Below, in pieces: positions 19,406 to 22,275 of a stretch of 64,000 bases of DNA. Under the pieces are notes generated by a model. That model did not search any database. It was not told the DNA's origin and was given only the letters and a program-made list of their open reading frames with translations. The DNA is taken from positions 1-64,000 of the forward strand of contig UEIJ01000005.1 of NCBI GenBank assembly GCA_900470195.1, read 5' to 3'. The translations under genes were made by a program, and so were the position numbers. Positions within the stretch are counted from its first letter, which is position 1; each line of letters begins with the position of its first letter. This DNA comes from Hyphomicrobiales bacterium. Its GTDB lineage: Bacteria; Pseudomonadota; Alphaproteobacteria; Rhizobiales; Rhizobiaceae.

Positions 19406-21658
19406 ATGTCACCCGCGACAAGTCTTTCAAATCATGGCAACAGAGGCGGGTTAGTTTCCCGCTTCTGTTCGTTTGTCTGGTTCTGCAACATGGCGTTGCT
19501 GCCGGCATTGGCTGTCATTTTCTGCCTGTTGCAGATCGTCCTGGCTCGAGCCGAGACACCCGCTTTGGTTACCCCGAACGAGGTTCAATCCGGCAGCCTT
19601 CTGCTGGAGACAAGCGAAGCTGGGCGTTACGCCGAAGCGCCCCGGATTGCCACGGACGTCAATCTCGATGTGAGCGGCCCGACGGTCCGAGCCCAGCTGA
19701 CGCAGGCATTCGAGAATCCGACAGACGGTTTCGTCGAAGCCCTCTATGTTTTTCCATTGCCCGAAGAAAGTGCAGTTTATTCGCTGAAAATGGTTATCGG
19801 CGATCGCGTGATTGTCGCTGACATCAAGGAGAAGCAGGCAGCTCGCGAAATATATGAAAAGGCGAAAAGCGAAGGCAAAAAAGCCACGCTGATCGAACAG
19901 CAGCGGCCTAATGTGTTTACCAATGCGGTCGCCAATATCGGCCCGCACGAAAAAGTCGTCATCCAGATCGAGTATCAGCAGGCGGTGCGACTTTCCGGTG
20001 GGCGTTTTTCGCTGCGTGTGCCGTTGGTCGTCGCACCACGTTATAATCCAGACAATGCTTCGCCCATTGTCCAGGAAGTCGAAATGAAAAACGGCTGGGG
20101 TATGACGAGCGATACTGGCAAGGCCGATACTTATAACGCACCGATTGTAACGCCCCTAACTCCTCCGGCTGAACTGCGGACCAATCCTGTGAGCATCTCA
20201 GTCAATCTGAAGGCTGGCTTCCCGCTTGGAAAGGTTGAAAGCCTTTACCACAAGGTCAGGATCGATACGACGAATGACGCCACGCGTGAAATTACGCTGG
20301 ACGGAGCCGCTGCTGCAGATCGCGATTTCGTTCTGGAATGGAGCGCTGTCGCAAGCGATGCACCACAGGTCGGGCTGTTCCGCGAACATGTCGGCAAGGA
20401 TGACTATGTGCTTGCCTATGTTACGCCACCGACTGTTGCCGGCATGAAGAAGGCGCAGCGTGAAGTCATCTTCGTGATCGATAATTCCGGATCAATGGGC
20501 GGCACATCCATGGAACAGGCGAAGGCCAGCCTGGATTACGCATTGTCAAAACTTCATCCCGGAGACCGTTTCAATGTGATCCGTTTCGATGACACATTGA
20601 CGAGGTTCTTCGAGGATTCGGTCGAGGCCAATCAGCAGAATATCGCCTCCGCCCGTCGTTTCGTAATGAACCTTGAAGCGCAAGGCGGCACGGAAATGCT
20701 ACCCGCCCTTCATGCTGCACTTGATGACAGCAATCAGGGTAACGGATTGCGGCAGATCGTGTTTTTGACCGATGGCGAGATCAGCAATGAGGAGCAATTA
20801 TTGGATGCCGTGGCGGCACGTCGAGGACGTTCGCGTATTTTCATGGTCGGCATTGGCTCTGCCCCGAACTCCTATCTGATGAATCGCGCGGCGGAACTTG
20901 GACGCGGAACCTTCACGCATATCGGGTCGGCGGCTGAAGTGGATGACCGCATGCGGGCTCTGTTCGACACGCTTGAAAACCCTGCTGTTACCGATCTGAA
21001 GGCTAATTTTTCCGAAAAGAATGTGAGCATGACGCCTTCCCTTCTGCCCGATCTCTATCGTGGCGAACCACTTGTCATCGCGGCACGAATGGGTAAAGCG
21101 ACGGGAAACCTTGTTATCGAAGGCCAGATTGACGGCCGTCCGTGGACAGTCGAACTGCCGCTCGATCAGGCAATCAATGCCGAAGGCATTTCAAAGTTGT
21201 GGGCGCGTCGCAAGATTGATGACGCCGAAGTGGAACTTACCCTTGGCAAGATTTCTCAGGACGCCGCCGATGCGCGCATTCTTCGCCTCGCACTGGAACA
21301 TCATCTGGTCAGCCGGCTGACGAGCCTCTTGGCTGTGGACAAGACACCCTCGCGACAGGCAAATGCGCCGCTGACCCGCGCCGATATTCCGCTGCAACTG
21401 CCGGCTGGCTGGGATTATGACAAGCTGTTCGGCATCCGTGCGGATCGCAACGTCGGGGATCGCGCAAGCATGGATATGAATGGTGTAAGCGACGCTGTTC
21501 GAAGCCATGAAAGCCCTGCATCACCGTCATCGCCGTCGCAGTCGATCCCGCTGCCGCAGACGGCAACGCCAGCAACGATGCTGCTCATTCAAGGCTTGGG
21601 TTTGGTGCTGGCTGGCCTGTTCGTCGTCTGGTTCTTCCGCCGCAAGGAGAATGTGTGA
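19406..21658 (+). CDS. Sortase-anchored VIT/von Willebrand A domain protein (proteobacterial dedicated sortase target)
   Basis: The 750-residue precursor is the single-substrate partner of a Gram-negative sortase. It has an N-terminal signal segment (to about residue 48). A VIT domain (residues about 60-190, with YVFPLPEESAVY) and a vWA domain with the MIDAS motif DNSGSMGG follow. The C-terminal sorting signal comprises LPQTA (716-720), a hydrophobic helix (LLIQGLGLVLAGLFVVWFF) and the basic tail RRKENV. The ATG at 19406 was chosen because AAGGAG lies six bases before it; the frame is open further up. The stop overlaps the sortase start. Such vWA proteins resemble inter-alpha-trypsin inhibitor heavy chains. 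Confidence 0.92.
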   Translation: MSPATSLSNHGNRGGLVSRFCSFVWFCNMALLPALAVIFCLLQIVLARAETPALVTPNEVQSGSLLLETSEAGRYAEAPRIATDVNLDVSGPTVRAQLTQAFENPTDGFVEALYVFPLPEESAVYSLKMVIGDRVIVADIKEKQAAREIYEKAKSEGKKATLIEQQRPNVFTNAVANIGPHEKVVIQIEYQQAVRLSGGRFSLRVPLVVAPRYNPDNASPIVQEVEMKNGWGMTSDTGKADTYNAPIVTPLTPPAELRTNPVSISVNLKAGFPLGKVESLYHKVRIDTTNDATREITLDGAAAADRDFVLEWSAVASDAPQVGLFREHVGKDDYVLAYVTPPTVAGMKKAQREVIFVIDNSGSMGGTSMEQAKASLDYALSKLHPGDRFNVIRFDDTLTRFFEDSVEANQQNIASARRFVMNLEAQGGTEMLPALHAALDDSNQGNGLRQIVFLTDGEISNEEQLLDAVAARRGRSRIFMVGIGSAPNSYLMNRAAELGRGTFTHIGSAAEVDDRMRALFDTLENPAVTDLKANFSEKNVSMTPSLLPDLYRGEPLVIAARMGKATGNLVIEGQIDGRPWTVELPLDQAINAEGISKLWARRKIDDAEVELTLGKISQDAADARILRLALEHHLVSRLTSLLAVDKTPSRQANAPLTRADIPLQLPAGWDYDKLFGIRADRNVGDRASMDMNGVSDAVRSHESPASPSSPSQSIPLPQTATPATMLLIQGLGLVLAGLFVVWFFRRKENV

Positions 21659-22275
21659 TGCCTATTAATCAAGTTGTTACAGGGAGCGCACTGAAGCGCT
21701 CCCTTCTCCCCGCGGTGGGAATGGTGCTGATTGCGATGGGGTTGGCACTTTCCGGTCAGGGAATCTGGATACATGCGAAAGCGTTTGCGGCGCAGATCCT
21801 GCTTGAAAGAGCCTTTTCGGAGAGCATTGAAACGGGCGCTCCGGTCAAACCCTGGGACTGGGCCGATACCTGGCCCGTTGCCCGCATAGAAGTGCCGCGG
21901 CTTGATGAATCAGCCATTGCTCTGAAAGGTGCCAGCGGTCAGGCATTGGCTTTTGGTCCCGGCCATCTGGACAATACGCCGATGGCGGGGGAACGGGGAA
22001 CGGCCATCTATGCTGCGCATCGCGACACGCATTTCGCATTTCTGAAGAATATCGAGAAGAACGACCAGATACTCGTCACTCGCAGCGACGGAAAGATGGT
22101 TTCCTATCGCGTCAGCCACATGACCGTAGCGCGATGGGATGAGGCGAAGCTCGCGCCGGATCGCGAAGGCCGCCACCTCGTCCTGGCGACCTGTTACCCA
22201 TTCGATGCGATTACTCCTGGCCCACTTCGCTATCTGGTCTATGCGGATATGGAGACAGGCAAGTCAGGTGATTGA
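21658..22275 (+). CDS. Class GN sortase
   Basis: This 205-residue transpeptidase has an N-terminal membrane helix (residues about 16-36) and a periplasmic sortase barrel. The catalytic triad is visible as H121 (AAHRDTHF), C179 (LVLATCYP) and R191 (GPLRYLVY). It should cleave the LPQTA motif of the protein encoded immediately upstream. The ATG overlaps the target stop by one base (TGATG), with AAGGAG in the target tail as ribosome-binding site. The 3' end overlaps the converging LLM oxidoreductase gene by 12 bases. Confidence 0.93.
   Translation: MPINQVVTGSALKRSLLPAVGMVLIAMGLALSGQGIWIHAKAFAAQILLERAFSESIETGAPVKPWDWADTWPVARIEVPRLDESAIALKGASGQALAFGPGHLDNTPMAGERGTAIYAAHRDTHFAFLKNIEKNDQILVTRSDGKMVSYRVSHMTVARWDEAKLAPDREGRHLVLATCYPFDAITPGPLRYLVYADMETGKSGD

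What the first reader, a model, noticed from the sequence alone, without database searches (positions are those of the whole stretch)
19406..22275. Dedicated Gram-negative sortase system with a vWA/VIT target
Class GN sortase and its one substrate form a two-gene overlapping unit. The target has LPQTA, a membrane helix and a basic tail; the sortase triad H121-C179-R191 is complete. Known in outline as a proteobacterial dedicated sortase pair, but what the target is anchored to in a cell with no thick peptidoglycan is unknown. The MIDAS motif DNSGSMGG suggests adhesion or protein binding. An XRE-type regulator is divergent and has an unknown sensor domain.
Basis: partly seen in the sequence, partly recalled or inferred. 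Interest (0 to 1): 0.72.

Follow-up and report, generated by a model that had tools for sequence, protein, structure and literature searches.

The report
Gram-negative sortase with one client
A soil-type bacterium carries a two-gene kit in which one enzyme appears dedicated to cutting and re-attaching the tail of one exported protein; the kit is a known kind, but relatives of the same protein sit beside two unrelated tail-processing enzymes instead, which suggests that processing of the tail is what matters.

Summary
The window holds a class GN sortase (TIGR03784) and its dedicated VIT/vWA target (TIGR03788), both above NCBI's curated cut-offs, as an overlapping pair with a divergent XRE gene. 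NCBI already uses these names in this group, so the pair is a member of a known kind. What the tools add: (1) In 297 genomes of the order, all 57 with a sortase over the cut-off have the target, adjacent in 56. (2) In 31 alphaproteobacterial genomes no kinase or OmpA-like partner of the canonical system passes its cut-off. One clade of targets, the window's, is linked to this XRE gene instead, which has an upstream CACA repeat, a probable operator, and a C-terminal beta-barrel. (3) Sortase-less relatives of the target have other tails: PEP-CTERM-like beside exosortase, or GlyGly-like beside rhombosortase. So one ectodomain is coupled to three unrelated processing enzymes. (4) By a published table the S. 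meliloti homologue is SMc01580, an acid-induced gene bound by ChvI. The acceptor remains unknown: peptidoglycan m-DAP or an aminolipid.

The parts
18473..19237 (-). XRE-type regulator, 255 aa: N-terminal HTH, C-terminal small beta-barrel (about residues 100-217); divergent from the target
   Evidence: HTH_3 22.3 bits, just under the cut-off of 23; pLDDT 83.6; divergent and adjacent to the target in 29 of 37 genomes with a strong homologue
19254..19279 (.). Conserved intergenic block CGTACTTTTCTTCACAATTCCACACA holding the CACA-N6-CACA direct repeat (19266-19279); probable operator of the XRE protein
   Evidence: Conserved with few changes in 19 of 19 intact genus loci; repeat in 20 of 30 non-redundant XRE loci against a shuffle mean of 0.23; one exact match in the window
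19406..21658 (+). Sortase target, 750 aa: signal peptide (by eye), VIT domain, vWA domain, low-confidence linker (642-722), LPQTA-membrane-RRK tail
21551..21655 (+). C-terminal sorting signal: LPQTA (residues 716-720), hydrophobic stretch, basic end
   Evidence: motif invariant in 27 aligned homologues
21658..22275 (+). Class GN sortase, 205 aa, N-terminal membrane helix (by hydropathy), H121-C179-R191

Best explanation
A dedicated class GN sortase and its only client. The target is exported by Sec and held in the inner membrane by its C-terminal helix and RRK end (inferred from sequence). C179 of the sortase cuts LPQT|A and holds the new C-terminal Thr as a thioester (inferred from family chemistry and the invariant triad). 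An amine on the periplasmic side then takes the protein over, so that the VIT/vWA head ends covalently anchored in the envelope on a flexible linker. Acceptor, not shown: the m-DAP side chain of peptidoglycan or lipid II is my first choice (about 0.5); an aminolipid that allows transfer to the cell surface is second (about 0.3); release by water or another amine is the rest. Expression is probably set by the divergent XRE protein through the CACA repeats, with a ligand in its C-terminal barrel as the likely signal (inferred). In the Rhizobium/Ensifer sister branch without the XRE gene, ChvI (acid and envelope stress) probably takes that part.
For: Both proteins pass curated equivalog cut-offs. 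Tight pairing: 57 of 57 in the order; 23 of 23 sortase genomes outside it, 5 of whose sortases are under the cut-off; sortase directly downstream in 79 of 80 named loci (the exception L188 runs into its contig end). Sorting tail and triad conserved in near homologues. The two over-cut-off targets in genomes without a sortase have lost LPxTA but keep the helix. Sister proteins in genomes without the sortase carry another tail with a fitting enzyme next door: exosortase in 7 of 8, rhombosortase in 5 of 5 plus one in G251, so C-terminal processing is what is kept. For m-DAP: the nearest solved sortase is 2ln7 (62.4 bits), which I recall as the class D enzyme of B. anthracis; passages say that this class D enzyme cleaves LPNTA peptides and anchors BasI, encoded in its own operon, to peptidoglycan; the next best NCBI models after class GN are class D (83.2 and 79.6 bits). 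For regulation; ChvI data on SMc01580 from passages.
Against: No cleavage, linkage or location has been measured here or in any paper that I found. The motif varies in relatives (32 of 54 have LPxTA or LPxTS; others are for example YPxTA, LPxGA, LPxSA, MANTS). Peptidoglycan anchoring would leave the head in the periplasm, whereas rhombosortase, and the archaeosortase relatives of exosortase, are tied to lipid anchors or surface display in the cases studied (passages). XRE control of the target is not shown: 5 of 37 strong XRE homologues sit in genomes without sortase or target over the cut-offs, 2 of these 5 also with the repeat, and the repeat lies nearer the XRE start, so it may serve only autoregulation. 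25 of 57 sortase genomes lack a strong XRE homologue.
Confidence: 0.8

Rival explanations
1. Aminolipid version: the sortase joins the target's Thr to the amine of a lipid (phosphatidylethanolamine, or an ornithine lipid), after which the protein moves to the outer surface, as in the rhombosortase system.
For: Sister VIT/vWA proteins sit beside exosortase and rhombosortase with matched tails. Rhombosortase-processed VesB is joined to a glycerophosphoethanolamine-containing moiety before surface display (passages); archaeosortase is modelled to use archaetidylethanolamine (passages).
Against: Sortases of known chemistry use peptidoglycan or pilin amines (recalled); the product of exosortases is unknown to me. 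Whether lipid genes are linked to the pair was not examined.
Confidence: 0.3
2. Sortase as a protease: the thioester is resolved by water and the target is released as a soluble periplasmic or secreted protein.
For: Cells have no thick wall; hydrolysis is a common side reaction of sortases in vitro (recalled). No call speaks for it directly.
Against: Conservation of the full triad, and replacement in sister proteins by other systems known or thought to anchor.
Confidence: 0.15
3. The XRE protein does not regulate the pair; it is a self-regulating neighbour that travels with the locus.
For: Strong XRE homologues occur in 5 genomes without sortase or target over the cut-offs, 2 of these 5 with the same repeat; in G174, G272 and G117 the XRE gene is not divergent next to the target; the repeat is nearer the XRE start.
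Against: 29 of 37 strong homologues are divergent and adjacent, and the 19 XRE-linked targets in the tree form one clade with support 99; the longest conserved intergenic block is shared by both genes.
Confidence: 0.35

Closest known systems
Class GN sortase and marine proteobacterial sortase target (NCBIfam TIGR03784 / TIGR03788)
   Same: Both proteins pass the curated equivalog cut-offs; adjacent pair; one client
   Different: The kinase TIGR03785 and the OmpA-like PdsO TIGR03789 do not pass their cut-offs (0 of 31 alphaproteobacterial genomes examined, against 12 and 11 of 19 from other classes); an XRE gene is linked to one clade instead
Class D sortase with LPxTA-type signals (Gram-positives)
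   Same: Nearest other class by profile (NF058671 83.2, NF033746 79.6 bits) and nearest solved structure 2ln7; acts on LPNTA; enzyme and client in one operon (passages)
   Different: Below the class D cut-offs of 140 and 165 bits; the cell has a thin wall and an outer membrane
Exosortase/PEP-CTERM and rhombosortase/GlyGly-CTERM systems
   Same: Encoded next to relatives of the same VIT/vWA protein
   Different: Unrelated enzymes and other tail motifs; rhombosortase is described as serving many clients (title of PMC3237569, listings)
Inter-alpha-trypsin inhibitor heavy chain (animals)
   Same: Same VIT + vWA build; best fold match 6fpz, E 3.4e-30 over 631 columns
   Different: Model confidence is low (mean pLDDT 64.4), identity 14%; no shared function shown. 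That heavy chains are joined by their C-terminus to chondroitin sulfate is recalled, not from a call

Membership tests
Class GN sortase (TIGR03784) | Score over the curated cut-off of 158.25 bits | tested here: met
   201.2 bits
Class GN sortase (TIGR03784) | His-Cys-Arg catalytic triad | tested here: met
   H121, C179, R191 invariant in 18 sequences
Class GN sortase (TIGR03784) | Adjacent dedicated target | tested here: met
   Overlapping genes; 57 of 57 genomes of the order with a sortase over the cut-off have a target, 56 adjacent
Sortase target TIGR03788 | Score over the curated cut-off of 551.65 bits | tested here: met
   768.8 bits
Sortase target TIGR03788 | C-terminal motif, membrane helix, basic end | tested here: met
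   LPQTA, hydrophobic stretch (19-residue hydropathy 2.34), RRK
Sortase system with kinase and PdsO (family names TIGR03785 and TIGR03789) | PdsO TIGR03789 over its cut-off in the genome | tested here: not met
   Own genome best 79.1 bits, cut-off 152.2
Sortase system with kinase and PdsO (family names TIGR03785 and TIGR03789) | Kinase TIGR03785 over its cut-off in the genome | tested here: not met
   Own genome best 164.0 bits, cut-off 612.2
Sortase system with kinase and PdsO (family names TIGR03785 and TIGR03789) | Response regulator (TIGR03787, recalled) | not tested
Class D sortase | Score over NF033746 or NF058671 cut-offs | tested here: not met
   79.6 (cut-off 165) and 83.2 (cut-off 140)
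Peptidoglycan-anchoring sortase | Covalent link of the client to a peptidoglycan amine | not testable with these tools
   Needs mass spectrometry
ITIH heavy-chain fold | VIT and vWA domains in one chain of the same fold | tested here: met
   fold only, at low model confidence
Lipocalin/avidin-type beta-barrel (XRE C-terminal domain) | Homology to a known ligand-binding barrel family | tested here: inconclusive

The most novel reading that the evidence does not exclude
The VIT/vWA envelope protein is a single functional module whose C-terminal conjugating enzyme can be replaced by non-homologous ones (class GN sortase, exosortase T-type, rhombosortase, and by NCBI's family name also exosortase N). 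All end in the same kind of product, an aminolipid-anchored protein at the outer surface, so that class GN sortases are lipid-conjugating sortases rather than wall-anchoring ones, switched on by envelope or acid stress.
Probability: 0.22. Interest if true: 0.85.

Novelty: new variant of a known kind. Interest (0 to 1): 0.55.

Why it matters
What a sortase does in a cell with a thin wall and an outer membrane is open (stated in a 2023 paper, passage). The exchange of tail and enzyme together in sister proteins is a handle on it: if sortase, exosortase and rhombosortase give this one protein a common product, that product is what the cell needs. The branch in Rhizobium and Sinorhizobium, which by a published table includes the ChvI-bound, acid-induced gene SMc01580, makes the question testable in harmless, well-worked laboratory strains.

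Tried and rejected
Regulatory hairpins near the start of the target: a 12-pair stem inside the first codons (19439-19469) is not kept in most of 19 genus loci; rejected. An inverted repeat upstream of the start (19338-19365) keeps 10 or 11 pairs in the 7 nearest loci, own included, and is weak in the other 12; left open, not part of my explanation.

ChvI site in the window: one match to the published GCC-N8-GCC consensus (consensus read), on the reverse strand at 19316-19329; too loose a pattern to mean anything alone. In 71 upstream regions of the non-XRE branch the pattern is enriched (66 matches, shuffle mean 25.9, largest 41), but these loci are closely related and the count is not corrected for that.

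Sigma-70 promoter and terminator scans gave no more than shuffles do. Mobile-element origin: no match to the pair region in the plasmid collection, not followed further. The XRE barrel has no clear named relative; a family that is not listed there is not excluded. The PEP-CTERM model TIGR02595 matched 2 of 7 PEP-type tails, both under its cut-off (14.0 and 13.5, cut-off 16), so these tails are called by eye, as are the six GlyGly-like ones; the enzymes next door carry the argument.

Limits: the CACA pattern was chosen after looking at the same sequences; 9 duplicate loci were dropped before the count of 30, and some of the 30 are close kin. In the control the upstream region was taken before the start of the match, not the start codon, and for 3 of the 74 (L192, L200, L203) it is misplaced altogether. 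The tree holds 33 of the 59 over-cut-off targets of the order, those with fetched loci, and 17 of the 32 sortase genomes there with a strong XRE homologue; G174 and G272 were put by hand in the XRE group although their XRE gene is not beside the target; the last 110 residues were cut off, the quick method was used, and the root is only a midpoint. Four of the 7 neighbouring exosortases and 3 of the 6 rhombosortases were classified by NCBI models. That SMc01580 is the homologue rests on one published table, not on a sequence of mine. The description text of the exosortase T model was not available, so NCBI may already note its VIT neighbour.
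Full report
WHAT IS THERE. The target gene runs from ATG 19406 (AAGGAG six bases upstream) to a stop at 21658 and encodes 750 residues; the sortase gene starts at ATG 21658 (or GTG 21655) and stops at 22275, so the two overlap as TGATG. The target has VIT and vWA domains, a DNSGS MIDAS motif at 359 with GGT at 427 and TDG at 455, LPQTA at 716-720, a hydrophobic stretch and the end FFRRKENV. It scores 768.8 bits with TIGR03788 (cut-off 551.65); the sortase scores 201.2 bits with TIGR03784, class GN sortase (cut-off 158.25). H121, C179 and R191 are invariant in 18 homologues. 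The genome has one such sortase, and the target is its only LPXTG-type anchor match over the cut-off that includes the motif. NCBI and other sources already name both proteins this way in Brucella and Ochrobactrum species, which also places the window in that group.

HOW TIGHT THE PAIR IS. In 297 genomes of the order, 61 have a sortase match at E 0.001 or better and 57 pass the cut-off; 184 have a target match and 59 pass the cut-off. All 57 have the target, in 56 on the same contig and strand just upstream, in G215 on another contig. The other four sortase matches (G079, G140, G233, G031; 82.5 bits or less) come without a target over the cut-off. In 397 genomes of the phylum, which overlap the first set, 42 match and 37 pass. 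Of the 23 of these outside the order (18 over the sortase cut-off, 5 under), all 23 have a target over its cut-off. In 80 named loci, found by the target, the sortase follows in 79; L188 ends before it. Many of these are genera that I know from soil and root nodules (Rhizobium, Ensifer, Sinorhizobium, Bradyrhizobium; names), against a published remark that the enzymes are limited to halotolerant proteobacteria (passage). In the window's genus 22 of 35 genomes match the target; one (G680) is a weak match of 18.9 bits, leaving 21, of which G655 is broken by stops and G682 lies in two pieces. The 6 genomes of 3.9 Mb or less have no real match, against 21 of the 29 larger ones (Fisher 0.002, kinship not corrected).

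THE ALPHAPROTEOBACTERIAL FORM. The family names TIGR03785 and TIGR03789 describe a kinase and an OmpA-like PdsO of the sortase system. In 50 sortase genomes examined, PdsO passes its cut-off in 11 and the kinase in 12, all among the 19 from other classes; none of 31 alphaproteobacterial genomes, the window's included, passes either, though all 50 have weaker matches of the general kinase and OmpA kinds. In 37 genomes of the order (own included) there is a strong homologue (at least 230 bits) of the window's XRE protein: 32 of these have the sortase over its cut-off and 5 do not. In 29 it is divergent and adjacent to the target; in G174, G272 and G117 it is on the same contig but placed otherwise. 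25 of 57 sortase genomes lack it. In a tree of 73 proteins built without tails, the 19 XRE-linked targets form one clade with support 99 (its coverage is under Tried and rejected). So the XRE gene most likely joined the pair once.

THE SISTER BRANCH AND STRESS. Of the 80 named loci 74 have no XRE gene within the stretch read, among them most Rhizobium and all Ensifer and Sinorhizobium loci; some other Rhizobium species have a window-like target and XRE protein. A table in PMC6637203 (passage) equates the Ensifer adhaerens OV14 sortase target with SMc01580 of S. meliloti, at 80%. Passages report that ChvI binds the SMc01580 upstream region (PMC3687685, citing earlier work), that it is in the set of genes induced fastest after a shift to pH 5.75 (PMC2651895), that a fusion rises at pH 6 and that deletion of jspA or lppA curtails the rise (PMC10659215), that it is listed among genes changed in a mutant without phosphatidylcholine (PMC8343143) and among genes induced with the regulator Clr (PMC5498481). 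Another paper calls the gene number next to it, SMc01581, a known direct target of ChvI (PMC12486126, passage). None of the passages calls SMc01580 a sortase target. By analogy the protein serves in the envelope under acid or envelope stress; whether this holds in the XRE branch is not known.

THE SWAP. Eight relatives of the target under the cut-off (355 to 487 bits) sit in genomes without a sortase match. Seven tails were read: all hold [AT]PEP, then a hydrophobic stretch and basic residues; in L238 the protein runs on for some 35 residues. An exosortase passes the Pfam cut-off in 7 of these 8 genomes, on the same strand, 801 to 918 bases upstream of the target by profile coordinates; two of the seven also have a second exosortase elsewhere. 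The eighth, G128, is 88% complete and its target lies near a contig start. Four were classified and are exosortase T (603 to 687 bits, cut-off 250). Five more distant relatives have a rhombosortase over its cut-off 330 to 378 bases downstream, and a sixth does in G251; all six tails read GGGG or GGGSGG before the hydrophobic stretch. In 9 sortase genomes searched alongside, own genome included, there is no exosortase match and no rhombosortase over the cut-off; general rhomboid matches under the cut-off occur in all 24 genomes. G251 and G268 have a target over the cut-off and no sortase; both tails have lost LPxTA. In the tree the 7 PEP-type proteins form one group next to the sortase type, and the 2 GlyGly-type proteins lie furthest away. 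NCBI also names a VIT protein of the exosortase N system, which L240 touches at 28.0 bits (cut-off 250). Thus one ectodomain is coupled to at least three unrelated C-terminal processing enzymes, each with its own tail. Two full-text searches found no paper that joins exosortase with 'VIT domain' (0 papers) or these enzymes with 'inter-alpha-trypsin' (5 papers held three of its four terms, none the last); most papers of subscription journals are outside that library.

WHAT IT IS ATTACHED TO. Two readings remain. (a) Wall: the enzyme is nearest to class D sortases, and a class D enzyme cleaves LPNTA and anchors its operon partner to peptidoglycan (passages); Gram-negative peptidoglycan offers an m-DAP amine (recalled). 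(b) Lipid: after rhombosortase cleavage VesB is joined to a glycerophosphoethanolamine-containing moiety ahead of surface display (passages), and an archaeosortase model uses archaetidylethanolamine (passages); if the swapped enzymes make equivalent products, the sortase should use a lipid amine. I put (a) at about 0.5 and (b) at about 0.3. The target model resembles inter-alpha-inhibitor heavy chain 1 (6fpz, E 3.4e-30, 631 columns, TM 0.49 by query length; mean pLDDT 64.4), and residues 642-722 are below pLDDT 50, which fits a flexible spacer before the anchor.

VERDICT. Observation confirmed; interpretation right in outline. The pair is a known kind; the XRE-linked form without PdsO or kinase is a variant; the exchange of tail and enzyme is the part worth following.

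Noticed in passing
L232-L238, L243-L249: VIT/vWA relatives of the target with PEP-CTERM-like tails lie directly downstream of an exosortase; the 4 of 7 classified are exosortase T.
   Followed up: yes
L239, L240, L250-L255: VIT/vWA relatives with GlyGly-like tails lie directly upstream of a rhombosortase.
   Followed up: yes
L027, L043, L044, L045, L063; also L192: In these sortase-linked targets the motif is LPxGA instead of LPxTA, so the residue that would form the thioester is Gly. The matching sortases were not compared.
   Followed up: no
L096-L100: Strong homologues of the XRE regulator in five genomes without sortase or target over the cut-offs; two keep the CACA repeat. Their neighbour genes were listed but not identified.
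   Followed up: partly
L223, L227-L229 (G655); L224, L226 (G682): Genus members in which the target gene is broken by stops (G655) or matched in two separate pieces (G682); described only.
   Followed up: no
window 19338-19365: An inverted repeat between the XRE block and the target start keeps 10 or 11 pairs in 7 of 19 genus loci and is weak in the rest; role unknown.
   Followed up: partly
window 22264-22275 and 18470-18494: Convergent overlaps at both edges: the sortase end overlaps the end of a luciferase-like monooxygenase gene, and the XRE gene end overlaps a LysR-type gene.
   Followed up: no
window 23349-27707: An RND efflux permease and, upstream of it, a gene that looks by eye like its membrane-fusion partner (not scanned), on the minus strand next to the system.
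   Followed up: no
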